Below, one piece after another: positions 20,922-33,939 of a stretch of DNA of 64,000 nt (position 1 is its first letter; each line of letters opens with the position of its first letter). The notes beneath the pieces were generated by a model. That model did no database searches. It saw nothing but the letters and a program-made list of their open reading frames with translations, and was not told where the DNA came from. This stretch comes from Streptomyces sp. NP160 (lineage in GTDB: Bacteria > Actinomycetota > Actinomycetes > Actinomycetales > Quadrisphaeraceae), in contig NZ_VDMJ01000003.1 of the NCBI RefSeq assembly GCF_006335115.1, forward strand, positions 124,001 through 188,000, given 5' to 3'. Both the position numbers and the translations under genes were made by a program.

Positions 20922-22289
20922 CTACCCGCGCTGGGCCGCTGCCGCAGCCCGAGCAGCGCCCGGCAGCGCCTCCAGGACGACGCCGACCGCGTCGTCGTCG
21001 TGGGAGGCCGAGACGAACCAGGACTCGTAGCAGGACGGCGGCAGGTGCACCCCGGCGTCGAGCATCGCGTGGAAGAACGCGGCGAAGGCACCCGCGTCCT
21101 GGGTGCGGGCGGTGTCGTAGTCGACCACGTCGACGTCGGTGAAGAAGACGCTGAACATGCTGCCCGCCACGCCCAGGGTGTGCGGGACGCCCTCGGCGGC
21201 CAGCGCCGCGGAGGCGGCGTCGCGGACGGTCGCGGCGACGGCGTCGACGCGCTCGTAGACCTCGGGCGTGCAGTGCTGCAGCGTGGCCAGGCCCGCGGCG
21301 GAGGCGACGGGGTTCCCCGACAGCGTGCCCGCCTGGTAGACGGGCCCGGCGGGTGCCAGGTGGGCCATGACGTCGGCGCGGCCGCCGAACGCCGCCACCG
21401 GGAAGCCGCCGCCCATCACCTTGCCGAAGGTGAACAGGTCCGGGGCGAGGGGCTGCTCCCCCGCGCCGTCGCCGAGGTCCACGCCCTGGCGGCCCTCCAG
21501 GCCGAACCAGCCGGCGCGCGAGAGGCGGAAGCCGGTCATGACCTCGTCGCTGATGAGCAGCGCACCGGCCCTGCGGGTCTCGCGCAGCAGCGCCGCCGTC
21601 CACCCCGGCGCGGGCGGCACCACGCCCATGTTGCCGGCGGCGGCCTCGGTGATGACGCACGCGATGCGGCTGCCGTGGGCGGCGAAGGCCTGCTCCAGGG
21701 CAGGGACGTCGTTGAAGGGCAGCACCAGGGTCTCGGCGGCGCTCTCCGGGGTCACGCCGGGGGTGTCCGGCAGGGCGAAGGTGGCCAGGCCGGACCCGGC
21801 GGAGGCGAGGAGGGCGTCGACGTGGCCGTGGTAGCAGCCGGCGAACTTCACCACCACGGGCCGGCCGGTGAAGCCGCGGGCGAGGCGGATGGCGCTCATC
21901 GTGGCCTCGGTGCCGGAGCTGACCAGGCGCACCTTCTCGAGCGGCTCGACGCGGGAGACCAGCTCCTCCGCGAGCAGCACCTCGCCCTCGCTGGGCGTGC
22001 CGAAGCTGAAGCCCTTCGCGGCGGCGGCCACCACGGCCTCGCGGACGGCGGGGTGGCCGTGGCCCAGGATCATCGGGCCCCAGGAGCCGATGAGGTCCAC
22101 GCGGCGCACGCCGTCGGCGTCGGTGAGCCACGGGCCGCTCGCCGAGGCGGTGAAGCGCGGGGTGCCGCCCACCGCGCGGAAGGCGCGCACCGGGGAGTTG
22201 ACGCCGCCGGGCAGCACCGCGCTCGCGCGCTCGAACAGGGCCTGCGACGCGGGGGCGGGCGTGGTGCCGGTCGGGGTGGTGGTGCTCAC
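20922..22289 (-). CDS. hemL: Glutamate-1-semialdehyde 2,1-aminomutase HemL
   Basis: This 455-residue fold-type I PLP enzyme has the cofactor Lys290 in [19 protein letters not shown], the [11 protein letters not shown] Asp that contacts the pyridine nitrogen, and [15 protein letters not shown]. It converts glutamate-1-semialdehyde to 5-aminolevulinate, the second step of the C5 route started by HemA in this window. GTG 22289 precedes a Ser/Thr/Pro-rich N-terminal leader of about 14 residues before the conserved [22 protein letters not shown] part. Its location beside the phosphatase and System II genes resembles the Mycobacterium order. Confidence 0.95.
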
Positions 22290-22331
22290 GCGACCATCCT
22301 CCCCGCGGCGGGCCGCGGGGACGAGCGGGCC

Positions 22332-22337
22332 TAGCGT
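22332..22337 (+). promoter_or_regulatory. -10 element for a leaderless membrane-protein gene
   Basis: TAGCGT is six bases upstream of GTG 22344, in the 54-base gap divergent from hemL. Confidence 0.5.
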
Positions 22338-22343
22338 GCGGGT

Positions 22344-23090
22344 GTGACCGACGGCGCGCTCGACGGGCTCGGCGGCCTGCTGCTGGCCGCCCTGGGCCTG
22401 GGGGTGGCGGGGCTCGACCCGACCGGTGCGCTGCTGGCCGCGGCCGCGCTCGCCGCGGGGGCCCGCCCCCGCGCGGTGCTGGTCTTCGGCGTCTCGGTGC
22501 TGGTGCTCACGGCCGCGCTGGGCGCGGTGCTCTCGCTGACCGCCGGCGCCTCGCTGAGCGGGGTCGACTGGGCCGGCTCGCTGCCGGGCGGGCCCGTCAC
22601 CGCCGCGCTGGAGGCGCTGGCGGGCCTGCTGGCCCTGGCGTGGGCCGCGGCGCGGCTGCGCCGCCGGGGGGCCCCGGCGCGCGAGGAGGCGGCGGCGGAG
22701 GCGAGCCGGCGCGGCGGCGCGCGCCTGGCCAGCGGGGCCGGGATGGTCGGTGCCGCGGTGCTCTTCACGGGCGGGGCGGTGCTGGACCCCTCCTTCGTCG
22801 GCCTCGTGGTGCTGGCCGGGCGCGGGGAGCCCCTCGGCCAGGTGGTGGCGGCGCACACCACCTGGTCGGTGGTCAGCCAGGCGCCGCTGCTGCTGCTGCT
22901 CCTGGTGGCCGTGGCACGCGGGGGCCACGAGCGGGCGGCGGCGCTGTTCGCCCGCTGGTGGGCGCGGGTCCGCCCGCTGGTGCGGCACCTCGTCACCGCC
23001 GCGCTGGCGCTCCTCGGGGCCGGGCTGCTGGTGGACGCCGGCTGGTACGCCACCACGGGCGGCTTCCTCGTGCTCGATCCCGGTCCCTGA
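22344..23090 (+). CDS. Polytopic membrane protein of unknown function (LysE/GAP-like?)
   Basis: This 248-residue, very Ala/Leu-rich protein has about six hydrophobic segments. The second contains [20 protein letters not shown] and the charged loop in the middle is rich in Arg and Glu. The general layout (three helices, charged loop, three helices) and the Asp-Pro in an early helix are reminiscent of GAP/LysE-type small exporters, but similarity is weak and I do not assign a substrate. It lies 51 bases upstream of the iron-exporter gene on the same strand, so they may be cotranscribed. Confidence 0.5.
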
Positions 23091-23141
23091 CCGCTCCGGC
23101 ACGGCGCCGCCTGCGCGCGCGGGGCGCCCGGCGCGACCATC

Positions 23142-24290
23142 ATGAGCGCCGTGCCCGGCACCTCCGCCCCGACCTCGTCGCGCGACGTCCGGCGCTGGCG
23201 CCGCCTGCTCGCCGACGAGCAGTACGAGGCCACCGTCTACCGGCGGCTGGCGCAGCGCCGCGGCGGCGAGGAGCGCGAGGTGCTGCTCGCGCTGGCCGAG
23301 GCCGAGGGCCGCCACGCCGCGCACTGGGCGGCGCTCATCGAGCAGAGCACCGGGGCGCCTCCCCGGCCCGGTCGCCCGAGCACCGGGCTGCGCCTCCTGG
23401 CGCTGCTGGCCCAGCGGTTCGGGTCGGTGTTCGTGCTGGCGCTGGCCCAGCAGGCGGAGGGCCGGTCCAGCTACGGCAGCGAGCCGCACGCCACCGCCGC
23501 GATGGCGGCGGACGAGCAGGTGCACGGCGAGGTGGTGCGCGGCCTGGCGGCGCGCGGGCGGGCCCGGGTGTCGGGCACGTTCCGCGCCGCGGTCTTCGGC
23601 GCCAACGACGGGCTGGTCTCCAACCTCGCGCTGGTCCTGGGCGTGGCCGGTGCCGGCACCAGCACCCGGGTGGTCCTGCTGACGGGCGTCTCGGGGCTGC
23701 TCGCCGGCGCGCTGTCCATGGCCGCCGGCGAGTACGTCTCGGTGCGGTCCCAGCGCGAGCTCATCGCCGCCTCGGCCCCCGCGCCGCACTCGCCGCAGGT
23801 GGTGGGCGCGCTGGACGTCGACGCCAACGAGCTCGCCCTGGTGTACCGGGCCCGCGGCATGGCCGAGGCCGAGGCCGAGCAGCACGCGGCCGAGCAGCTC
23901 GCTGCGCTGCGGGGCGGCCGCACGGTCCAGGGGCGGGGCGCCGCGGCGCGACCGCTGTCGCCGTCGCCCGGCCTCGGCGTCCCGCAGGAGGACGACGACG
24001 GCGACGACGTGGTCGGGAGCGCCTGGGCCGCCGCGGGCTCGTCGTTCGCCTTCTTCGCCAGCGGCGCGCTCGTGCCCGTGCTGCCCTTCCTCGTGGGGCT
24101 GGAGGAGGGTGCTGCGCTGGTCACCGCGCTGGTGCTCGTGTCGCTGGCGCTGCTGACCACCGGCGCCGTGGTCGGCGTGCTGAGCGGCGGCCCGCTGCTG
24201 CCCCGGGGGCTGCGCCAGCTGGCCATCGGCCTGGGGGCCGCTGCGGTCACGTACCTGCTGGGGCTGCTCTTCGGGACCGCGGTCGGCTGA
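23142..24290 (+). CDS. Erythrin-VIT family iron/manganese exporter (MbfA-like)
   Basis: This 382-residue protein fuses two domains. Residues about 15-130 form a rubrerythrin/ferritin-like helical bundle with metal-ligand pairs ([31 protein letters not shown]). From about 145 a VIT1/CCC1 transporter domain follows, with [20 protein letters not shown] and [15 protein letters not shown]. The membrane part has five helices, with a charged cytoplasmic loop containing [15 protein letters not shown]. Relatives (MbfA) export iron and protect against hydrogen peroxide. No IdeR/DtxR box is visible upstream. Confidence 0.88.
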
Positions 24291-24350
24291 CGGGCCGGGC
24301 CTGCGTCGCGCGCGGTCGGCGTCGCCGTCGTCAGCGGTGACCGCGGGCGG

Positions 24351-24839
24351 TCAGCGCAGGTGCTCGGCCAGCCGCCCGCAGATCCGGCCGAGCGCCTCGA
24401 CGTCCTCGCGGGGGAGCTGGTCGAAGAGGTGCTGGCGGACACCGGTGACGTGCAGCGGAGCGGCGGCCTCGAGCGCGGCGAAGCCCGCGGGCGTCAGGAC
24501 GGCGAGCACGCCGCGGCGGTCCTCGGGGCACGCGCGGCGCTCGACGAGCCCGCGGTCCTGCAGGCGGGAGATGGCGTGCGTGAGGCGGCTGCGGGAGTGC
24601 ACGAGGTCGTCAGCGAGGTCCGACATGCGCAGCGAGCGGTCGGGTGACTCCGAGAGCCTCACCAGCAGCTCGTAGTCGGCGAGGGACAGGTCGTGCTCGG
24701 ACTCGTCCAGCTCCTGGCTCAGCCGGCGGGCGAGCAGCTGGGTGGCCTCGAGGTAGGTCCGCCAGGTGCGCTGCTCGTCCGCGTCCAGCCAGCGGGTCTG
24801 CGCGGTGGTCTCAGCGGTGGTCTCAGCGGTGTCGGTCAT
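24351..24839 (-). CDS. MarR-family regulator divergent from yceI
   Basis: This is a 162-residue winged-helix regulator. The core is DLSLADYELLVRLSESP, the recognition region MSDLADDLVHSRSRLTHAIS with the wing ACPEDRRGVLAVLTPAG. ATG 24839 was preferred because GGAGGTG is eight bases upstream; a start at 24893 would extend through the operator region. Divergent MarR-yceI pairs are common in actinobacteria, and the dyad in the gap is the probable binding site. Confidence 0.85.
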   Translation of the reverse strand: MTDTAETTAETTAQTRWLDADEQRTWRTYLEATQLLARRLSQELDESEHDLSLADYELLVRLSESPDRSLRMSDLADDLVHSRSRLTHAISRLQDRGLVERRACPEDRRGVLAVLTPAGFAALEAAAPLHVTGVRQHLFDQLPREDVEALGRICGRLAEHLR

Positions 24840-24876
24840 GTCGGCCACCTCCGGGCGGGCTGACAGCGGGAACAAA

Positions 24877-24896
24877 GTTGAATGTTGAACCATTAT
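24877..24896. promoter_or_regulatory. Candidate MarR operator and promoter between marR and yceI
   Basis: GTTGAATGTTGAAC (24877-24890) is an imperfect dyad with an internal TTGAA direct repeat. It touches CATTAT (24891-24896), whose complement ATAATG gives a -10-like CATAAT on the minus strand for the marR gene. The site is unusually AT-rich for this genome. Confidence 0.5.
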
Positions 24897-24965
24897 GCGT
24901 CACAGTGGAGGTGCAGCGCACCCCCGCGGCGCCTGAACCGCACGTCGACCCACCTGGAGGACACC

Positions 24966-25517
24966 ATGGCCACCACCCTGCCCGCCGGCCTCGTCGCTGG
25001 CACCTACACCGTGGACCCGTCGCACACCGAGGTCGGCTTCACCGCCCGCCACGCGATGGTCACCAAGGTCCGCGGCCGCTTCTCCGACGTCGCCGGCACC
25101 GTCCAGATCGCCGAGGACGCCTCCCTCATCTCGGTCGAGGCCACCGTGCAGGTCGCCAGCGTCGACACCCGCAGCGCCGACCGCGACGGCCACCTCAAGA
25201 GCGCCGACTTCTTCGACGTCGAGCAGTTCCCCACCATGACCTACCGCTCCACCTCGGTGCAGGTCTCCGGTGACGGCTTCCTCGTGGACGGCGACCTGAC
25301 CCTCCACGGCGTGACCAAGCCCGTGCAGCTCGAGGTCACCGCCGAGGGCGTCGCCACCGACCCCTTCGGCAACTCCCGAGCCGGCTTCTCGGCCGAGACC
25401 GAGATCAACCGCAAGGACTTCGGCCTGACCTGGAACGCCGCGCTGGAGACCGGCGGCGTGCTCGTCAGCGAGAAGATCAAGATCACGCTGGACGTCTCGG
25501 CCATCAAGCAGGCCTGA
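24966..25517 (+). CDS. YceI family lipid-binding-like protein
   Basis: The 183-residue protein has the YceI signature: GTYTVDPSHTEVGFTARHAM, a central RSADRDGHLKSADFFDVEQF and the end RKDFGLTWNAALETGGVLV plus ISVDA-type strands. The fold is a lipocalin-like beta barrel that binds polyisoprenoids in characterised members. No signal peptide is evident, so this member acts in the cytoplasm. ATG 24966 is preceded by TGGAGG. A link to isoprenoid quinones is possible but is only inference. A clear terminator follows. Confidence 0.9.
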   Translation: MATTLPAGLVAGTYTVDPSHTEVGFTARHAMVTKVRGRFSDVAGTVQIAEDASLISVEATVQVASVDTRSADRDGHLKSADFFDVEQFPTMTYRSTSVQVSGDGFLVDGDLTLHGVTKPVQLEVTAEGVATDPFGNSRAGFSAETEINRKDFGLTWNAALETGGVLVSEKIKITLDVSAIKQA

Positions 25518-25531
25518 GCCTCCGCACCCTC

Positions 25532-25568
25532 GAAGACCCCCACCCGGCGCGGCCGGGTGGGGGTCTTC
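25532..25568. terminator. 17-bp hairpin terminator after yceI
   Basis: GAAGACCCCCACCCGGC (25532-25548) pairs perfectly with 25552-25568 around a three-base loop, 14 bases after the yceI stop. It may also serve the convergent DUF385 gene. Confidence 0.8.
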
Positions 25569-25625
25569 TGCGTTCCCACCCGGCGCGCCTGCGACCCCCG
25601 CTCCCGGACCGCAGCGAAGGGGGGG

Positions 25626-26126
25626 TCAGGTGGCGGGCGTGATGACGAAGACGGGGTGCTTCGGAGCTGCAGCCAGGAGCTGCTCGTCGCTGGCGCCCGC
25701 GCCGACGCCGTCGAAGAAGGCACCCACCTCCCACGCCCACCGGCGCAGGTACTCGCGCAGGACGGGCAGCTTGTCGGCGTCAGGCAGCTCCACGGCGCGG
25801 AAGGGCTCGGTGCGGCGCCCCGCGCGCAGCTCCCCCTCGCCCGCGACGCGCAGGTTGCGCACCCACTGCGTGTGCCCCCGGGGCGCCACGAGGTAGCGCT
25901 CGCCCCCCAGCGACAGCGGGTTCACCGGCGTGGTCCGCCACTCACCGGAGCTGCGCCCCCGCACGGCGAGGACCCGCGAGCCCGCCACGGGCAGGCCCCA
26001 GCGCGTCAGGACGGCGACGCCGGGGTTGAGGACCCGGGCGGTGAACCGGCCGGGCGCGAGGTAGCGGGTCCCCGCGCCAGAACCGTGAGCACTGGACTTC
26101 TTCGAGAGCGCTGCTCTTGTCGACAT
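25626..26126 (-). CDS. Deazaflavin (F420)-dependent nitroreductase family protein (DUF385)
   Basis: The 166-residue protein matches the small split-barrel DUF385/Ddn family: VLAVRGRSSGEWRTTPVNPL, then GERYLVAPRGHTQWVRNLRV, the typical nucleotide/F420-binding strands. Family members in actinobacteria use F420H2 or bind it. ATG 26126 lies six bases after CACACT on the minus strand, suggesting a leaderless transcript. One TetR-type operator falls inside codons 4-7. The divergent tetR gene is the likely regulator. Substrate unknown. Confidence 0.82.
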   Translation of the reverse strand: MSTRAALSKKSSAHGSGAGTRYLAPGRFTARVLNPGVAVLTRWGLPVAGSRVLAVRGRSSGEWRTTPVNPLSLGGERYLVAPRGHTQWVRNLRVAGEGELRAGRRTEPFRAVELPDADKLPVLREYLRRWAWEVGAFFDGVGAGASDEQLLAAAPKHPVFVITPAT

Positions 26127-26173
26127 GGCACGAGTGTGCACCCGCAGCCCTCCAGGAACAAGAGCAGTGCTCT
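26105..26173. promoter_or_regulatory. Two TetR operators flanking the DUF385 promoter
   Basis: The 13-bp palindromes AGAGCGCTGCTCT (26105-26117) and AGAGCAGTGCTCT (26161-26173) lie exactly 56 bases apart and extend to a 17-base inverted pair with one mismatch. The minus-strand promoter CTTGTT (26157-26162), 18-base spacer, CACACT (26133-26138) is enclosed by them. The distal box overlaps the -35 and the proximal box is just inside the coding region. Confidence 0.75.
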
Positions 26174-26213
26174 CGGTTCCGAGCACCGATCTCGCGGGTG
26201 GCAGGATGCGCCC

Positions 26214-26900
26214 GTGACCGCCGTCCTGACCGCCCGCGAGCGCGCCCGCCGGGAGCTGACGGCCGAGATCCTCGGCGCCGCGCGCCGCCAGCTGGCCGAG
26301 GTCGGTGCCGCCGGGCTCTCGGTGCGCGCCGTCGCGCGGGAGCTGGGGATGGCGTCCTCAGCGGTCTACCGCTACTTCGCCACGCGGGACGAGCTGCTGA
26401 CGGCCCTCATCGTGGAGGCCTACGACAGCTGCGGCGCCGCCGTCGAGGCGGCGTCCGCCGCCGGCGGGGACAGGACGCCGCGCGACCGCTTCACCGCCGG
26501 CTGCGCCGCGCTGCGGACCTGGGCGGTGGAGCACCCGCACGAGTTCGCCCTGGTCCACGGGTCGCCGGTACCGGGCTACCGGGGGGACGAGCGCACCACG
26601 GCGGCCGGCTCGCGCAGCCCCCTGGCGCTGCTGGCCGTCCTGGCGGGCGCCGACGCCGTGCGCGCGCGGCAACCGGGGCCGCCCCTGGGCGAGCAGGCCG
26701 CCCGGGTGCTCGCGGCGGCCGCCGGAGGGCCCGCGGCCCAGGCCTCGCCCGCCGTCGTGGTGGCCGGGGCCCGGGCGTGGACGGCGCTCCTGGGCCTGGT
26801 GAGCAGCGAGCTCTTCGGGCAGCTGGCGAACACCTTCGACCCCGCCGACGCCTTCTTCGCCGAGGCCGTGGCGTCGATGGCCGACGACCTGGGCCTGTGA
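26214..26900 (+). CDS. TetR-family transcriptional regulator
   Basis: This 228-residue regulator has the TetR helix-turn-helix at residues about 15-62 (LAEVGAAGLSVRAVARELGM, then SSAVYRYFATRDELLTALIV) and a C-terminal ligand domain of the TetR_C_33/WHG-like type, with ending DPADAFFAEAVASMADDLGL. GTG 26214 follows CAGGAT by six bases. The gene is divergent from the DUF385 gene and the intergenic region carries two matching palindromes, so it likely represses that gene and perhaps itself. Ligand unknown. Confidence 0.87.
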   Translation: MTAVLTARERARRELTAEILGAARRQLAEVGAAGLSVRAVARELGMASSAVYRYFATRDELLTALIVEAYDSCGAAVEAASAAGGDRTPRDRFTAGCAALRTWAVEHPHEFALVHGSPVPGYRGDERTTAAGSRSPLALLAVLAGADAVRARQPGPPLGEQAARVLAAAAGGPAAQASPAVVVAGARAWTALLGLVSSELFGQLANTFDPADAFFAEAVASMADDLGL

Positions 26901-27063
26901 GCCGGCGCCCGTGGTCCGTCCTGCGGCTGCTCGCCGACGCCCGCCGCGGCGGTCCGGCGGGTCCCCACCGCAGCGGCGCGCCGGGCCGCCGCCCTCGCCT
27001 AGGCTCGCCGGGACCGCCCCAGCACCGGGCAGTCGCCCTGCACGTCCCGGAGGGGGTCAGCTC

Positions 27064-27900
27064 GTGAGCCGGCACCGCGCGCCCTCGTCCGTGACGCGGC
27101 GCGGAGCACTCGTGGCGGGGGCCGCGTGGGTGGCGGGCGCCTTCGCAGCCTCCTCCGGCCTCGGCGGGCGCTGGGGCGCCACCGCGGCCCCGTCGGCGGC
27201 GCCGGCGGAGGCGCTGGCGGCTGCGCAGGTGCCCCCGACCCCCGCCGGCACCCCGTCGACGCCCCCCACCGCGAGCCCCACCACGGCCACCGCGACCGCG
27301 AGCGCCACCTTCGACAGGACCGCGCACTCCACCGGCGAGGCGTCCAGCCCGTGGGTGGTGGTGAACAAGCAGCACCCGATCGTCCCTGCGGACTACGAGC
27401 CCGCCCAGGTGGTGCGCGTGGCCGGTGAGCTGGTGAGCGCCGTCGCCGCCCCCGACCTGGAGGCCCTGCTCGCCCACAGCCGCGACGACGGCGTCGCCCT
27501 GACCCTGGTCAGCGGCTTCCGCACGCACGAGTACCAGGAGCAGGTGCACCGCCGCTCGGTCGCCCGCAACGGCCAGGCCGGCGCGGACCGGTACAGCGCG
27601 CGCGCCGGGTACAGCGAGCACCAGACGGGTCTGGCCGTCGACTTCTCCTCCGCCGACGGCAGCGCCACCCTGAGCCCTCGGTTCGGGGAGACCGACGAGG
27701 GGCTGTGGCTCGCCGAGCACGCCGGCGCCCACGGCTGGCTGCTCCGGTACACCGAGGCCGACCAGGCCGTCACGGGCTACAACCCGGAGCCGTGGCACTT
27801 CCGCTGGGTGGGCGTGGAGCTGGTGGCGGCCATGGCGGCGGCGGGCACGCCCACGCTGGAGCAGTTCTTCGGCGTGAGTGGCGGCCCCGACTACGCCTGA
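27064..27900 (+). CDS. Exported D-alanyl-D-alanine carboxypeptidase, VanY (peptidase M15) type
   Basis: The 278-residue protein has an N-terminal twin-arginine-like signal (VTRRGALVAGAAWVAGAFAA), a Thr/Pro/Ala-rich linker of about 50 residues and a VanY domain. Zn-binding and catalytic motifs are visible: SEHQTGLAVDF (His, Asp), the SGFRTHEYQEQVH block, and EPWHFRWV (Glu, His). It would trim the terminal D-Ala of peptidoglycan stem peptides outside the membrane. GTG 27064 has GGAGG at 27051-27055. Resistance to glycopeptides is not implied, because no vanHAX genes are near. Confidence 0.88.
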   Translation: MSRHRAPSSVTRRGALVAGAAWVAGAFAASSGLGGRWGATAAPSAAPAEALAAAQVPPTPAGTPSTPPTASPTTATATASATFDRTAHSTGEASSPWVVVNKQHPIVPADYEPAQVVRVAGELVSAVAAPDLEALLAHSRDDGVALTLVSGFRTHEYQEQVHRRSVARNGQAGADRYSARAGYSEHQTGLAVDFSSADGSATLSPRFGETDEGLWLAEHAGAHGWLLRYTEADQAVTGYNPEPWHFRWVGVELVAAMAAAGTPTLEQFFGVSGGPDYA

Positions 27901-27966
27901 CCGCGACGGGTCGGCGCAGCGGGGCCGCCCTCAGCAGCCCCGGGCCGGGAGAGGCCGGTCAGGCGG

Positions 27967-28449
27967 TCAGGACGCCGAGCCGACGGCGTCGCGCTGCTCG
28001 CTGGTGCTCTCCACGACCTCGTGGTGGTCGGAGCGGGAGCTGCGCGAGACCTCGATGCGCCGCGGCTGCGCCGAGGGCGCGACCGGCACCAGCAGGTGCA
28101 GCACGCCGTCGCGGTAGTCGGCGCTGACGCCCGCGGCGTCGAGGCCGTCCCCGATCTGGAGCTGCCGGACGAACGAGCCGTGCGGCCGCTCGGCGATGAG
28201 CACCTCGCGCGAGCCCGCCGCCCGGGTGGACCGCTCGGCGCGGACGGTGATGACGTTGCGCTCGGTGGTCACGTCCACGCTGCTCGGGTCGACACCGGGC
28301 AGGTCGAGCTCGACGTGGTAGCCGCTCTCGTCCTTCCAGACGTCCATCGGCATGCGCATCGGGGTGCGAGCGCCGCTGACCAGCTGCTGGGCCATGCGGT
28401 CGAGCTGGCGGAAGGGGTCGCCGAAGGGGTCGAACTGCATGACGGTCAC
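27967..28449 (-). CDS. Hsp20 small heat-shock protein
   Basis: This 160-residue protein has a short N-terminal arm (QFDPFGDPFRQLDRMAQQL), an alpha-crystallin domain starting MDVWKDESGYHVELDLPGVD with the conserved ADYRDGVLHLLVPV strand, and a polar tail. It acts as an ATP-independent holdase that binds unfolding proteins. GTG 28449 has GAGGAGG seven bases upstream, which decides it over the ATG 12 bases further on. No CIRCE or HAIR element is visible upstream, so its heat control is unclear. Confidence 0.92.
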   Translation of the reverse strand: MTVMQFDPFGDPFRQLDRMAQQLVSGARTPMRMPMDVWKDESGYHVELDLPGVDPSSVDVTTERNVITVRAERSTRAAGSREVLIAERPHGSFVRQLQIGDGLDAAGVSADYRDGVLHLLVPVAPSAQPRRIEVSRSSRSDHHEVVESTSEQRDAVGSAS

Positions 28450-28559
28450 GGGGATCCTCCTCACCGGATCACGGGATCACAGGACGCGGTCCGCCGTCGC
28501 GGTCCGCGGGCACCCTCTGCGGTGCCACCCCGGGGATACCCGAACCGACCACGCACCAA

Positions 28560-28592
28560 ACCTGGGTTGAGCGTCCTCCGCTCAACCCAGGT
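28560..28592 (-). terminator. Hairpin terminator of the hem operon
   Basis: Bases 28560-28573 pair with 28579-28592 (14 bp, loop TCCTC). The stem touches the hemB stop codon and is followed on the minus strand by TTTGG, the closest to a U-run in the window. Confidence 0.8.
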
Positions 28593-29572
28593 CAGCCCCG
28601 GCGCAGCAGGTCTGCGACCTCCGTCGCCCAGTAGGTGAGCGTGGCCGTGGCCCCGGCGCGCTGGACCGACGTCAGCGACTCGAGGATCGCGCGCTGGCGG
28701 TCGATCATCCCGGCGGCCGCAGCGGCCTCGACCATCGCGTACTCCCCCGAGACCTGGTAGGCCCACACCGGGACGTCGACGGCGGCGGCCACGTCGCTGA
28801 GGACGTCGAGGTAGGGCAGCGCCGGCTTGACCATGACGACGTCGGCGCCCTCCGCGACGTCCAGGCGCACCTCGCGCAGCGCCTCACGGCGGTTGCCCGG
28901 GTCCATCTGGTAGGCCCGGCGGTCGCCCTGCAGGGTCGACTCGACTGCCTCGCGGAAGGGGCCGTAGAAGGCCGACGCGTACTTGGCGGCGTAGGCCAGC
29001 AGGACGACGTCGGAGCGGCCGACCGCGTCGAGCGCGGAGCGCACGACACCGGTCTGGCCGTCCATCATCCCGCTGAGCCCCAGCAGGGAGGCCCCCGCCT
29101 CGGCCTGCGCCAGCGCCATGGAGGCGTACCTCTCGAGCGTGGCGTCGTTGTCGACCCGGCCCGCGTCGTCGAGGACGCCGCAGTGGCCGTGGTCGGTGAA
29201 CTCGTCGAGGCACAGGTCGGCCATGACGACGCAGTCGGAGCCGACCGCCTCGTCCAGCACCCGCAGGGCGGTGTTGAGCACGCCCTCGGGGTCGTCGGCG
29301 CCCGAGCCGCGCGCGTCGCGCACCGCCGGGACGCCGAAGACCATGATCCCGCCGACGCCGGCGGCGACCGCCTCCTGCGCGGCGTCGACCAGGGACGTCA
29401 TCGTGTGCTGCACCACGCCCGGCATCGACTGCATGGGCGAGGGCTCGCGCAGCCCCTCCTTGACGAAGACCGGCAGCACCAGCCGCTGCGGCGCCAGGTG
29501 CTCCTGCGCGCTGAGCGACCGCAGCGCCGGGGTGGCGCGCAGGCGCCGCGGCCGCTCAGCGGGGAAGGGCAT
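28592..29572 (-). CDS. hemB: Delta-aminolevulinic acid dehydratase (porphobilinogen synthase) HemB
   Basis: The 326-residue TIM-barrel enzyme has the two active-site lysines (Lys197 in [12 protein letters not shown] and Lys249 in [10 protein letters not shown]) and the metal loop [12 protein letters not shown] at 121-132. That loop keeps two Cys but has Asp where full zinc enzymes have the third Cys, as in other actinobacterial and Mg-dependent forms. It joins two aminolevulinate molecules into porphobilinogen. ATG 29572 lies ten bases after the hemD stop, and the hem terminator follows directly. Confidence 0.95.
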
Positions 29573-29582
29573 CAGCGGCCGA

Positions 29583-31370
29583 TCACCGACGCCGGCGGGC
29601 GCCGGCGCGGCGCTCGCTCGGACGCAGCACGGGCTCACCGGCCTCCTCGGCCTGGGCGCGCAGCTGCGCGCCGTAGGCGGCGAGGGAGTCGACGAGCGAT
29701 GCGGTGCTGGCGTGCTCGGCCTGGACGTCGACGCGCAGCCCCAGCTCGGTGGCCGTGGCGCAGGTCGCCGGGCCGATGCAGGCCACCACCGTGCTCGGGT
29801 GCGGCTTGCCGGCGATGCCGACGAGGTTGCGCACCGTCGACGACGACGTGAAGACGACGGCGTCGAAAGCACCCGTCTTGATGGCGTCGCGCACCGGCGC
29901 CGGCGGCGGGGCCGCCCGGACGGTCCGGTAGGCGGTGACGTCGTCCACCTGCCAGCCGATCTGCTGCAGGCCCTCGACGAGGGTGTCGGTGGCGATGTCG
30001 GCGCGGGGCAGGAACACCCTGTCGATGGGGTCGAGGACCTCGTCGTAGGGCGGCCACTCGGCCAGCAGGCCGGCGGCGGACTGCTCGCCCTCGGGCACCA
30101 GGTCGGGCTCGATGCCCCAGGCGCGCAGCTCGGCGGCGGTGACCCCGCCGACGGCCGCGACCTTCAGCCCGGAGAACGCGCGGGCGTCCAGGCCGTACTC
30201 GGCGAACTTGTCCTTGACGGCGCGGACGGCGTTGACGGAGGTGAACCCGACCCACTCGTAGCGGCCGGTGACCAGGCCGCGGACGGCCTTCTCCATCTGG
30301 TGGGGGCTGCGCGGCGGCTCCACGGCGATGGTCGGCACGACCTCGCTGACGGCGCCGACGGCGGCGAGCCGCTCGACGGTGGCCGACGACTGCGCCTGCG
30401 TGCGGGGCACGAGCACGCGCCAGCCGAACAGCGGACGCGACTCGAACCACGCCAGCTTGTCGCGCTTGGCGACCCCCGGGCCGAGGACGGCCACGAGCGG
30501 CTCGGGCAGGTGGTCGCCCTCCGCGGCCAGCACGTCGGGCAGGGTGGCGAGGGTCGCCGAGACCGAGCGCTGGGCGGTGGTGGTGCCCCCGGAGGTCACG
30601 ACGACCTCGGCGGACCCGCTGCGCCCGGAGGCCAGCAGCGCCTTGGCCGCGCCCACGACCTCGTCCGCGGTGCCCGTCACGACGACGGTCCCGGGCACGC
30701 CCGTCACCGCGTCGACCGCGGCCTCGCCCTGCGCGGCGTCGAGCACGTGCACGTCGCTGGCGCGGGAGGTGGCGGTGGCGATGCCGGCGTACAGCGGCAC
30801 CGCGGTGGCCACGGACACCCCCGGCACCACCTCGACGGCCACCCCGGCGCGGCGGACCGCCGCGAGCTCGTCGGCGAGCTGCGGGGAGCTGGCGGCGTCC
30901 CCGCTGAACAGGCGGACCACCGCGCGGCCGGAGCGGGCGGCGGACAGGGAGAGCTTGGCGCGCGCGGCGCCCGTCAGCGGTGCGCCGCCCTCGGGGGCCG
31001 CGGTCTCCAGCACCTCGACGCCGTCGCCGCAGTGGCGCGCGACGGCGGCCAGCGCGGCGCTCTCCGGCGCCCCGGTGGAGCCGGCGTCGGCACCGCGGTC
31101 GACGACGACGACGTCAGCGGCCGCGAGCAGCTCCGCCGCGCGCAGCGTGAGGAGCCCGGGGTCGCCGGGGCCGGCGCCGACGAAGGCGACGGCCGGCACG
31201 GGCGCCGGAGCGACCTGGCTGCTGGCACCGCCGGCCGACGACGCGGTCGAGGAGGTGGTGGGACCGCCGGCGGCACCCGCGGAGGTGCTGGGGGCGGTGG
31301 TGGCGCCGGCGTCGGTCGCTGCCTGCGGCGCAGCGGCGGTGAGCGTCGGGGCGGAGGTGGGCGGGGTCAC
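29583..31370 (-). CDS. hemD: Uroporphyrinogen-III synthase with degenerate N-terminal methyltransferase-like domain (CobA-HemD fusion)
   Basis: This 595-residue protein has an N-terminal low-complexity leader of about 55 residues and then a tetrapyrrole methylase fold ([22 protein letters not shown] to [10 protein letters not shown]). From about residue 330 a complete HemD domain begins ([44 protein letters not shown]). In the methylase part the usual GGDPFVFGRGGEE site of uroporphyrinogen methyltransferases is replaced by [14 protein letters not shown], so methylation activity is doubtful. HemD activity should be intact. GTG 31370 overlaps the hemC stop. Mycobacterial homologues have a similar divergent fusion. 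Confidence 0.9.
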
Positions 31371-32476
31371 GGGTGCACCCTCTCCGGCGGCGCGTCGGCC
31401 GCCGTGTCGTGAGTGTTCGAGGCTGGCTGCGGTGCTGCGCTGCTGGTGCGCGGGGTGTCGGGGTGGGCGGGGTCGGGGGGTGTCACCAGGCGGGCTGCCT
31501 GAGGGGTCTGCGCGTCCTGCGGTGAGGAGGCCGGTCCGGGGACGAGCGGTGCGAGGGCCGGCGAGCCTGAGGCGAGCAGCTCCGCGGCCACCCGGCGCCC
31601 GGTGCCGGCGGCGTCGTCGAGCTGGCCGGCGCCGGTGCGCACCGCGGTGGCGGAGCCGTCCAGGGCGGCGACCAGACCGGTGAGCCGCAGCCCGCCGTCG
31701 TCCTCGGTGACCGCCAGCGCGCCGACGGGCGCGGCGCAGCCGGCCTCCAGCGCAGCGAGCAGGGCGCGCTCGGCGGTGGTGGCGGCCCGGCTCGCGGGGT
31801 CGTCCAGGAGCGCGCAGGCGGCGCGCACGGCCTCGTCGTCGGCGCGGCACTCCACGGCCAGCGCTCCCTGGCCCGGCGCGGGCAGCAGCTGGTCGGTGCC
31901 CAGCACCTCGGTGACCTCGTCGCCGCGACCCAGCCGCAGCAGGCCCGCGCGGGCCAGCACCACCGCGTCGAGGTGGCCCTCGGAGACCATCCGCAGCCGG
32001 GTGTCGACGTTGCCGCGGACGTCCACCACCTGCAGGTCGGGGCGCAGCGCCCTCAGCTGGGCGGCGCGCCGCGGCGACCCGGTGCCGACGCGCGCGCCGG
32101 CCGGCAGGTCGGCCAGCCGGCGGCCGGAGGAGGCGACGAGCACGTCGCGGGGGTCCTCGCGGGGCGGGACCGCCGCGACCACCAGGCCCGGGGCCGGGGC
32201 GGTGGGCAGGTCCTTGAGGGAGTGGACGGCGAGGTCGACCCGGCCCGCCAGGAGCGCCTCGCGCAGCGCCGTGGCGAAGACGCCCGTGCCGCCCAGGCTC
32301 GACAGGGGCGCGCGGGACACGTCGCCCTCGGTGGTGACCTCGACGAGCTCCACGGCCCGGCCGGTGCGCTCGCGCAGCGCCTGGGCGACGTGCTCGGACT
32401 GCGTGCGGGCCAGGGCGCTGCGGCGCGTGCCGAGCCGCAGCGCGGGCGCCGAGGCAGCAGCGGTGCCGGCGCTCAC
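31367..32476 (-). CDS. hemC: Porphobilinogen deaminase (hydroxymethylbilane synthase) HemC
   Basis: The 369-residue enzyme has LRLGTRRSALARTQ at the start, DLAVHSLKDLP, GTGSPRRAAQL and the dipyrromethane-cofactor Cys247 in LEAGCAAPVGA. It polymerises four porphobilinogens into hydroxymethylbilane. Length exceeds the usual ~310 residues because of a Pro/Ala/Thr-rich C-terminal tail of about 55 residues with no known role. Its GTG overlaps the hemA stop and its stop overlaps hemD (both GTGA). Confidence 0.94.
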   Translation of the reverse strand: MSAGTAAASAPALRLGTRRSALARTQSEHVAQALRERTGRAVELVEVTTEGDVSRAPLSSLGGTGVFATALREALLAGRVDLAVHSLKDLPTAPAPGLVVAAVPPREDPRDVLVASSGRRLADLPAGARVGTGSPRRAAQLRALRPDLQVVDVRGNVDTRLRMVSEGHLDAVVLARAGLLRLGRGDEVTEVLGTDQLLPAPGQGALAVECRADDEAVRAACALLDDPASRAATTAERALLAALEAGCAAPVGALAVTEDDGGLRLTGLVAALDGSATAVRTGAGQLDDAAGTGRRVAAELLASGSPALAPLVPGPASSPQDAQTPQAARLVTPPDPAHPDTPRTSSAAPQPASNTHDTAADAPPERVHP

Positions 32477-33939
32477 GCGGCGCCCTCCTCGGGTGCCTGC
32501 GCGGTGGCGGGCGCGGCGACCGCCCGCAGGACCTCGGCGACGCTGCCGCCACCGGTGGACGCGCTGCCCGAGGTCTGCACGGTCGGCGCGACCGGCCCCG
32601 CGCCCAGGCCGCCCAGGCCCCCGGCGGGGCCGTCCAGCGCGAAGAGCTCGCGCAGCACCGCGGCGTAGCCGGCCCCGTCCGCGCCGTCGGCGGCGAGCGC
32701 CTTCACCCGGACGGTGGGGGTGTGCAGCAGCTTCTCGGTGACGCGGTGCACGGCCAGCTCGGCCTCCGCCACCACGCGGGGGTCGGCGTCGGCGCCCAGA
32801 CGCCCCCGCAGACGGGCCACCTCGGCCTCGACCACGTCGCGTGCGAGGGAGCGCAGCGCCGCCACCGTGGGCGCCACCGCGGCGGCGCGCTGCTCCGCGA
32901 GGTAGCCGGCCACCTCCTCGGCGACCACCGCGCGCGCGGAGCGGACGCTGCCGGCCACGCCGGCGAGCGCCTCGTCGTCCTCGGGGGCGACCGCGAGCCG
33001 CCGGCGCAGCGCGTCCAGCCCCACCAGCTCGACGCCCGGCAGCTCACCGGCCGCTGGGTCGACGTCGTGCGGGAGGGCCAGGTCGACCACGAGCTGCGGG
33101 GCAGCCCCGCCGTCCGCACCGGTGCGGCGCTCGGCGCGCGCGGCCTCCAGCTCCGCCGCGTCCAGGACCGTGCCCACGGCGCCGGTGCACGAGACCACGA
33201 CGTCGGCCTGCGCCAGCGCGGCCCTCAGCGCCGCGGCGTCGTCGAGGCCGAGCCAGGTGCCGCCGACGGCGGCGGCGAGGCGCTCGGCCCGGGCGGGGGT
33301 GCGGTTGGCCACGGCGATCGACCCGACGCCGAGCCGCTGCAGCGTCGTGGCCGCGAGGGCGCTCATCGAGCCCGCGCCCACCACCAGAGCGTGCGCGTCC
33401 GCGAGCGGCCCGACCACGGCGTCGGCGCCCTCGAGCGCGGCCTCGACCAGGGAGCGGCCGGCGCGGTCGAGGCCGGTCTCGCTGTGGACGCGCTTGCCGA
33501 CCCTCAGCGCGCGCTGGACCAGCTGGTCCAGGACGCGCCCCACGGTGCCGTCCTCCTGGCCGCGGCGCAGCGAGGCGCGCACCTGGCCCAGCACCTGCGA
33601 CTCGCCCAGGGCCATGGAGTCCAGGCCGGCGGAGACGGAGAACAGGTGCTCCACGGCGCGCTCGCCGTAGGCGAAGAGCAGCGACTCGGCCAGGTCGGGC
33701 AGGGGCACGCCCGCGCGCTCCGCGAGCGCCGCCGACAGGTCCTGCACGCCCAGGTGGAACGACGGCACCACCGCGTACACCTCGACGCGGTTGCAGGTGG
33801 CCAGCACGGCGGCCTCCTGCACCGCACCGCCGCACAGCTCGCGGGCCAGCTCGCGGGCGCCCTCGGCGTCCAGCGCCGCACGCTCGAGCAGGGAGATCGG
33901 AGCGGTCCGGTGGGACATCCCCACGAACAGCAGGCTCAT
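32473..33939 (-). CDS. hemA: Glutamyl-tRNA reductase HemA
   Basis: This 488-residue enzyme begins MSLLFVGMSHRTAPISLLER and has the catalytic Cys49 in VLATCNRVEVYA, the tRNA/dimer region ESQVLGQVRASL, and the NADPH-binding ALVVGAGSMSALAATTL. It reduces glutamyl-tRNA to glutamate-1-semialdehyde, the committed step of C5 haem synthesis, using tRNA-Glu. A Gly/Ser-rich C-terminal tail of about 45 residues extends it. ATG 33939 overlaps the rex stop as ATGA, so Rex and HemA are translationally coupled. Confidence 0.95.
   Translation of the reverse strand: MSLLFVGMSHRTAPISLLERAALDAEGARELARELCGGAVQEAAVLATCNRVEVYAVVPSFHLGVQDLSAALAERAGVPLPDLAESLLFAYGERAVEHLFSVSAGLDSMALGESQVLGQVRASLRRGQEDGTVGRVLDQLVQRALRVGKRVHSETGLDRAGRSLVEAALEGADAVVGPLADAHALVVGAGSMSALAATTLQRLGVGSIAVANRTPARAERLAAAVGGTWLGLDDAAALRAALAQADVVVSCTGAVGTVLDAAELEAARAERRTGADGGAAPQLVVDLALPHDVDPAAGELPGVELVGLDALRRRLAVAPEDDEALAGVAGSVRSARAVVAEEVAGYLAEQRAAAVAPTVAALRSLARDVVEAEVARLRGRLGADADPRVVAEAELAVHRVTEKLLHTPTVRVKALAADGADGAGYAAVLRELFALDGPAGGLGGLGAGPVAPTVQTSGSASTGGGSVAEVLRAVAAPATAQAPEEGAA

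What the first reader, a model, noticed from the sequence alone, without database searches (positions are those of the whole stretch)
26105..26173. Two TetR boxes enclose a leaderless promoter, one inside the target's coding sequence
The 13-bp palindromes AGAGCGCTGCTCT and AGAGCAGTGCTCT are 56 bases apart. One covers the -35 of the DUF385 gene and the other lies over codons 4-7 of the same gene, just downstream of a predicted leaderless start. Dual occupation could block initiation or loop the DNA. The ligand and role of the F420-type protein are unknown.
Basis: partly seen in the sequence, partly recalled or inferred. Interest (0 to 1): 0.5.

Follow-up and report, generated by a model that had tools for sequence, protein, structure and literature searches.

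The report
Repressor clamp inside its target gene
A bacterial repressor probably docks at two matching DNA sites that bracket the start of the neighbouring gene, an arrangement widespread in related bacteria; here one site doubles as the gene's first codons because the gene apparently starts right at its promoter.

Summary
The two boxes are the only exact AGAGCRCTGCTCT sites in the 4.77-Mb genome. The motif lies upstream of 77 of 80 relatives of the neighbouring TetR gene, at least twice in 67; control stretches 0 of 80. In reverse, a search for the DNA pair hit 66 of 394 genomes; all 30 loci fetched carry this TetR. Aligned on box B, 78 loci share one promoter register: -35 at the box edge, 17-bp spacer, -10. 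In leadered DUF385 relatives box A lies before the start codon (13 of 13). In the window's clade and, separately, one other lineage, the ATG sits 6-7 nt behind the -10, so box A became codons. It is kept as DNA: rare AGA codons, and synonymous recoding almost never restores it in 6 of 8 genes (about 2% in the other two). Weaker boxes lie 19 bp outside each main box. Best reading: an autoregulated divergon whose repressor clamps the core promoter; looping is not needed. Binding, 5' ends and ligand are untested.

The parts
25626..26126 (-). DUF385 / F420H2-dependent reductase-like gene (166 aa), ATG at 26126, predicted leaderless target gene
   Evidence: PF04075 34.8 bits, cut-off 22; model resembles F420 reductases Msmeg_3358 and Ddn; beside the TetR gene in 6 of 6 same-genus genomes, own included
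26214..26900 (+). TetR-family regulator, TetR_N + TetR_C_33, GTG start, the presumed binder of the boxes
   Evidence: PF00440 and PF13305 above cut-off; relatives Rv1816 and SCO4313
26105..26117 (.). Box A, main operator inside codons 4-7 (+10 to +22 from the predicted start point), 11 of 12
   Evidence: a box at this place in 6 of 6 same-genus sequences, own included
26161..26173 (.). Box B, main operator abutting the -35 (-35 to -47), 12 of 12
   Evidence: relatives
26086..26098 (.). Box A0, weaker box 19 bp outside box A, inside the DUF385 coding sequence, 9 of 12
   Evidence: 13 of 78 loci have 8 or more of 12 at this offset, shuffled background 0.25%
26180..26192 (.). Box C, weaker box 19 bp outside box B towards tetR, 9 of 12
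   Evidence: 32 of 78 loci have 8 or more of 12 at this offset; its GCTCT half is conserved
26156..26161 (-). -35 hexamer TTGTTC of the DUF385 promoter
   Evidence: T, T, G at this register in 77, 75 and 76 of 78 loci
26133..26138 (-). -10 hexamer CACACT of the DUF385 promoter, 6 nt before the ATG
   Evidence: A at second position in 54 of 78 and T at sixth in 52 of 78
26202..26207 (+). candidate -10 (CAGGAT) of tetR, 6 nt before its GTG; tentative
   Evidence: no clear conservation at this place

Best explanation
This is an autoregulated divergon. The TetR protein (26214-26900) binds as dimers to two strong 13-bp operators, one abutting the -35 (box B) and one just downstream of the transcription start (box A), each with a weaker satellite 19 bp outwards. 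Bound repressor clamps the core promoter of the DUF385 gene, keeping RNA polymerase off the -35 and off the start region, and through B and C also damps its own promoter. An unknown ligand, by analogy with Rv1816 perhaps fatty-acid-like, releases it and induces an F420-type reductase. Box A is coding only because the 5' leader was lost: the ATG now sits at the start point between -10 and box A, so the fixed operator was captured as codons 4-7 and dictates N-terminal residues. Shown by comparison: the motif, its tie to this TetR, the promoter register, the ATG position, DNA-level constraint. Inferred: binding, repression, leaderless mRNA, ligand release, and the order of events (leader loss rather than gain).
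For: Motif fixed on the window's genus and family, then scored on 80 TetR loci (one of them, L038, repeats a genus member): 77 of 80 have a box at 10 or more of 12, 67 of 80 at least two; control stretches 0 of 80; 14 loci around weaker TetR-type hits of the family genomes 0 of 14. Reverse search with the DNA pair: 66 of 394 genomes, control pattern 0; 30 of 30 fetched loci (window included) have this TetR beside the boxes, 21 with an epimerase-like and 9 with a DUF385 partner. Promoter register on box B. ATG at +47 or +48 from box B in the 8 leaderless loci; box A upstream of the start codon in 13 of 13 leadered DUF385 loci. In L012 that ATG is the only in-frame start found from 66 nt upstream (a stop) to codon 29; in L038 a stop lies 6 nt upstream. 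AGA 0 of 2717 codons in gene bodies against 9 in codons 3-4 of 7 genes. Random synonymous recoding keeps as good a box in 0 of 20000 trials for 5 genes, 2 for one, 461 and 429 for two. The leaderless state needs 2 changes on the TetR tree.
Against: No binding, expression or 5'-end data. The window's -10 and -35 are weak and the standard promoter scan finds none. Box A is imperfect. 3 of 80 relatives lack any box, as does the G003 family homologue. Among the 12 loci whose neighbour is neither epimerase-like nor DUF385, only 3 have two boxes, against 54 of 58 and 21 of 21. Boxes 19 bp away also occur on the inner side of box A (14 of 78), so 'outer satellites' is not the whole pattern. In the window an in-frame GTG 15 nt upstream, behind a GGAGG, could be the start.
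Confidence: 0.76

Rival explanations
1. Looping: dimers on boxes A and B contact each other and bend the promoter segment into a small loop, and this, not simple occlusion, represses.
For: Spacing 53 is the commonest value (20 of 78) and is close to five helical turns; resultant 0.37 at period 10.5.
Against: Spacing also clusters at 33-35, 40-42 and 48-52, which are not one phase; rows are related and the 53 peak weighs heavily in the statistic; box B stays at the -35 and box A within 33-56 bp of it in 74 of 78, as occlusion needs.
Confidence: 0.12
2. The gene is leadered: translation starts at the in-frame GTG at 26141, behind GGAGG (26153-26149), from a promoter further upstream; box A is then deeper in the coding sequence.
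For: A well-spaced GGAGG-GTG is present in the window (sequence; start listed).
Against: In the other 7 leaderless loci no in-frame start lies at that position; L012 has no upstream in-frame start before a stop and L038 a stop at -6. The -10 to ATG distance is 6 nt in six and 7 nt in two of the 8 loci.
Confidence: 0.1
3. Box A in the coding sequence is kept for its peptide (TRAALS-like N terminus), not as DNA.
For: The encoded N termini are similar in the 7 clade members.
Against: Rare AGA codons and the recoding test; a different frame and peptide in L109; leadered relatives keep the box outside the gene and lack the peptide; the segment has low model confidence.
Confidence: 0.03
4. The boxes are bound by a regulator other than the adjacent TetR.
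For: No binding was tested.
Against: Box pair and TetR co-occur in both search directions, while 14 other TetR-type loci lack the box and target genes vary.
Confidence: 0.04

Closest known systems
tetR-tetA divergon, as described in PMC3511530 (passages read)
   Same: Divergent TetR-type repressor and target, two palindromic operators, control of both promoters
   Different: Operators there lie in intergenic DNA; here one is inside the target's codons; different palindrome, and weaker boxes at 19 bp
Zur- and DtxR-controlled leaderless genes of Corynebacterium glutamicum (PMC2823685 and PMC1382209, passages read)
   Same: Mapped leaderless transcripts whose candidate repressor motif overlaps the core promoter; one Zur motif serves a divergent pair
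   Different: Other regulator families; in the passages read the motif overlaps the promoter, and no second site within the first codons is mentioned
Rv1816 of M. tuberculosis (PDB 5d1r)
   Same: Closest solved homologue (3.4e-61), near-identical recognition-helix stretch (SSAVYRY); a review says palmitic acid reduces its DNA binding (PMC6463170, passages)
   Different: Reported targets there are mmpL genes and kasA; no operator letters in the passages read
SCO4313 (PDB 2oi8)
   Same: Homologue, 2.6e-42
   Different: Recognition-helix stretch differs (GPALYRY); no paper in the library names it
Leaderless mRNAs of mycobacteria (PMC7148126, abstract and passages read)
   Same: Start codon at the 5' end; about 14% of genes there
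   Different: No repressor site within the first codons in the passages read
F420-dependent reductases (Msmeg_3358, Ddn)
   Same: Fold (Foldseek 6.8e-07, TM 0.58 by query, to Msmeg_3358) and PF04075
   Different: TIGR00026 just under its cut-off (44.3 of 46.35 bits); substrate unknown

Membership tests
TetR/AcrR family, TetR_C_33 (Rv1816-like) branch | TetR_N helix-turn-helix and TetR_C_33 domain | tested here: met
   49.1 and 64.2 bits against cut-offs 24 and 26.8
TetR/AcrR family, TetR_C_33 (Rv1816-like) branch | Palindromic operator next to its own gene | tested here: met
   77 of 80 relatives; by comparison only
TetR/AcrR family, TetR_C_33 (Rv1816-like) branch | Ligand-released DNA binding | not testable with these tools
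   no binding assay
PF04075 F420H2-dependent reductase | Pfam model over cut-off | tested here: met
   34.8 bits, cut-off 22
TIGR00026 deazaflavin-dependent oxidoreductase subfamily | Curated score cut-off | tested here: not met
   44.3 against 46.35 bits; not filed there
PF04075 F420H2-dependent reductase | Host makes F420 | tested here: inconclusive
   cofD present, 320.6 bits, cut-off 257.45; other F420 genes not sought
PF04075 F420H2-dependent reductase | Binds F420 and reduces a substrate | not testable with these tools
   none
Leaderless gene | Start codon about 7 nt behind the -10 | tested here: met
   6 nt between -10 and ATG in the window; 6-7 nt in 8 of 8 loci so classed
Leaderless gene | No alternative start codon | tested here: inconclusive
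   none in L012; an in-frame GTG 15 nt upstream exists in the window
Leaderless gene | Mapped 5' end at the start codon | not testable with these tools
   no RNA data
Looping repressor pair | Sites kept in helical phase | tested here: inconclusive
   resultant 0.37 at period 10.5, weighted by one spacing value in related rows

The most novel reading that the evidence does not exclude
A repressor family common in actinobacteria uses an operator array not described under its letters in the library searched (two main boxes clamping the core promoter, weaker boxes at 19 bp), and change from a leadered to a leaderless start has at least twice turned the downstream operator into obligatory codons, so that a transcription-factor site writes the N terminus of the enzyme it controls.
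Probability: 0.6. Interest if true: 0.55.

Novelty: new variant of a known kind. Interest (0 to 1): 0.44.

Why it matters
It gives a testable operator and likely targets for a large, little-studied TetR branch that includes Rv1816, and a clear comparative case of a promoter-operator layout kept while the start codon moves: the operator stays in place and the protein's N terminus adapts. On print: six spellings of the 13-mer gave one unrelated paper. A looser half-site search gave 2,183 papers, of which 20 were listed; one TetR-type Streptomyces paper (PMC7480387) was opened, and the letters there are in primers. The 19-bp satellites were not searched for in print. Leaderless-plus-operator searches were judged from listings, except two papers opened. 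Most subscription journals are missing from that library.

Tried and rejected
Sigma-70 and terminator scan: no promoter; one terminator-like hit is an inverted repeat overlapping box B, not pursued. Regulon elsewhere: no other exact site; the five one-mismatch loci L003-L007 hold one box of 10 or more each; two-mismatch places were not examined. Helical phasing as proof of looping: inconclusive. Rv1816 operator letters: 13 papers listed; passages of PMC6463170, PMC10312376, PMC9430723 and PMC10843139 read, none seen. Searches for TetR with leaderless, deazaflavin, F420, epimerase and roadblock terms and with Rv1816, mmpL3 and palmitic-acid terms showed nothing on this arrangement, by listings. 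First DUF385 alignment stopped on a wrong frame; coordinates recomputed and re-run. Codon count over window genes: 3 AGA in 2330 codons, but it includes the DUF385 box itself and one stretch in a wrong frame, so it was not used.

It also said that loci with other partners mostly keep the pair; the recount shows 3 of 12. Confidence was lowered slightly for this, and interest for the Corynebacterium precedents.

13 of 91 loci lack two boxes at 10 or more of 12 and are outside the 78-locus counts. In L014 the picker took another pair (spacing 19), so that row is out of register but still counted. L013 was left out of the DUF385 alignment A2. The 80 loci are the best 80 of 580 confirmed candidates, themselves from a capped list, so they lean to close relatives. 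Only 30 of the places found were fetched.

Full report
Observation. The two 13-mers lie where stated. The DUF385 gene runs from 26126 down to 25626 on the minus strand and the TetR gene starts at 26214 on the plus strand. Counted from a start point at the A of the ATG (26126), box B is at -35 to -47 and box A at +10 to +22. The -35 TTGTTC touches box B and shares one base; the -10 CACACT is 6 nt before the ATG. Among all 13-mers of the 64-kb window only these two reach 10 of the 12 motif positions; eight reach 9, and four of the eight are within 107 bp here, the extra two exactly 19 bp outside each main box. In the 4.77-Mb genome there is no other exact AGAGCRCTGCTCT. Loose matches (up to two mismatches) are no commoner in the window than chance.

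Who binds it. I fixed the motif AGAGCANTGCTCT after looking at the genus and family, then fetched 80 TetR relatives from named genomes (L038 repeats a genus member). Of these, 77 have a box with 10 or more of 12 positions within -300 to +45 of the match start, 67 have two or more, and the last 345 bp of the same loci have 0 of 80. Fourteen loci around weaker TetR-type hits of the family genomes have 0 of 14. A search for two boxes 34-56 bp apart, blind to protein, hit 66 of 394 genomes of the class; the reversed control pattern shows none. The 30 loci fetched, the window included, all encode a homologue of this TetR (48-100% identity) beside the boxes, with an epimerase-like partner in 21 and a DUF385 partner in 9. 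Against: 3 of 80 have no box; two Streptomyces loci carry an AGAACANTGTTCT version, which the 10-of-12 threshold still counts; the G003 homologue has none.

Partners. Of 91 loci, 58 have an epimerase-like divergent gene (PF01370 in the two scanned), 21 a DUF385 gene, and 12 something else or unassigned. Two boxes are present in 54 of 58, 21 of 21 and 3 of 12 of these. So the pair goes with the TetR together with these two target types; where the neighbour differs the pair is mostly reduced.

Promoter register. In the 78 loci with two boxes, sequences aligned on box B alone show T, T, G in 77, 75 and 76 of 78 at its edge, then A, C, A in 54, 53 and 38, and 17 bp on a -10 with A in 54 and T in 52 of 78. 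So box B and the target promoter form one unit. Box A starts 53 bp from box B most often (20 of 78); in 74 of 78 it is 33-56 bp away, which places it on or just after the -10 or start region. At exactly 19 bp outside box B, 32 of 78 loci have a second box of 8 or more of 12; outside box A, 13 of 78; inside box A, 14 of 78; shuffled background 0.25%.

Why one box is coding. Among 21 DUF385 loci, 13 have the start codon 26-59 nt downstream of the start of box A, with a Shine-Dalgarno-like stretch visible by eye in the printed sequences. In the other 8 the ATG is 47 or 48 nt from box B, box A begins 6-9 nt into the gene, and the -10 is 6 or 7 nt before the ATG. Seven of these form one clade (window genus and Kineococcus indalonis; support 99), the eighth (L109) lies elsewhere; the state needs two changes on a FastTree tree that is poorly resolved at depth. 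No epimerase-class locus has an ATG at 47-48; GTG codons at 48-51 occur in L014, L016, L017 and L060 and an ATG at 50 in L059, and of these L060 could be read either way. In L012 the ATG is the only in-frame start between an upstream stop (66 nt) and codon 29; in L038 a stop lies 6 nt before it. In the window itself an in-frame GTG with a GGAGG before it lies 15 nt upstream, and is the main rival start.

DNA or protein? AGA is absent from 2717 codons of the seven clade members (whole TetR genes and DUF385 after codon 15) but occurs 9 times in codons 3-4 of their DUF385 genes, at or beside the edge of box A. Recoding the first 12 codons at random with clade codon usage gives a box as good as the real one in 0 of 20000 trials for five genes, 2 for L010, 461 for L012 and 429 for L109 (for L109 the usage is not its own). 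In L109 the box is in another frame and gives a different peptide. In the model of the window protein the first three blocks of ten residues average pLDDT 50, 42 and 49, while 87 of 166 residues reach 90. The operator, not the peptide, appears to be what is kept.

The proteins. The TetR matches TetR_N and TetR_C_33; nearest solved homologues are Rv1816 and SCO4313. Rv1816 shares the SSAVYRY stretch; a review says palmitic acid lowers its DNA binding (PMC6463170, passages). The ligand idea is by analogy only. The target matches PF04075 over its cut-off, falls just short of TIGR00026, and its model resembles Msmeg_3358 and Ddn; cofD is present.

Mechanism. Best reading: occlusion by a repressor clamp on both sides of the core promoter, with autoregulation through boxes B and C. 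On the tetR side the GCTCT half of box C is conserved (G 66, C 55, T 64, C 63, T 49 of 77), but a -10 for tetR is not clearly conserved; the candidate 6 nt before its GTG is tentative. Looping is possible but not required. That leadered DUF385 loci and the epimerase loci keep the same register argues that the clamp came first and the coding overlap followed; the direction is inferred.

Ordinary and not ordinary. A divergent TetR with two operators is textbook (PMC3511530, passages), and leaderless genes with a repressor motif over the core promoter are known in Corynebacterium (passages of PMC2823685 and PMC1382209). Not seen in the searches made: this motif with a TetR and an operator captured as first codons (by listings except those two papers).

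Noticed in passing
window 24870-24895: A TTGAATGTTGAAC-like repeat lies at the upstream ATG of a MarR-type ORF (24893, minus) beside a YceI-like gene; perhaps a second case of an operator over first codons if that ATG is used (names by eye).
   Followed up: no
L114 and L115, upstream of tetR: Streptomyces relatives carry AGAACANTGTTCT in place of AGAGCANTGCTCT, suggesting a shifted specificity.
   Followed up: no
L117, 1002-2450 minus: Here the divergent neighbour is an MMPL-family transporter, recalling the mmpL targets reported for Rv1816.
   Followed up: no
L064 and L102: Divergent neighbour is serine hydroxymethyltransferase, with only one box upstream of tetR.
   Followed up: no
L085, upstream of tetR: Three identical perfect boxes 22-26 bp apart, a tighter array than in the other loci.
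   Followed up: no
L021 (G008 second copy): A 39% identical paralogue in the window's genus has its own box pair upstream of a different gene.
   Followed up: partly
L061: Record titled 'UNVERIFIED_ORG: Bacillus sp. AZ43' groups with Blastococcus in the TetR tree, so the label is probably wrong.
   Followed up: no
window 20922-32552: ORFs that look like hemL, hemB and a uroporphyrinogen-synthase/methyltransferase fusion flank the region, that is, haem genes on both sides (by eye).
   Followed up: no
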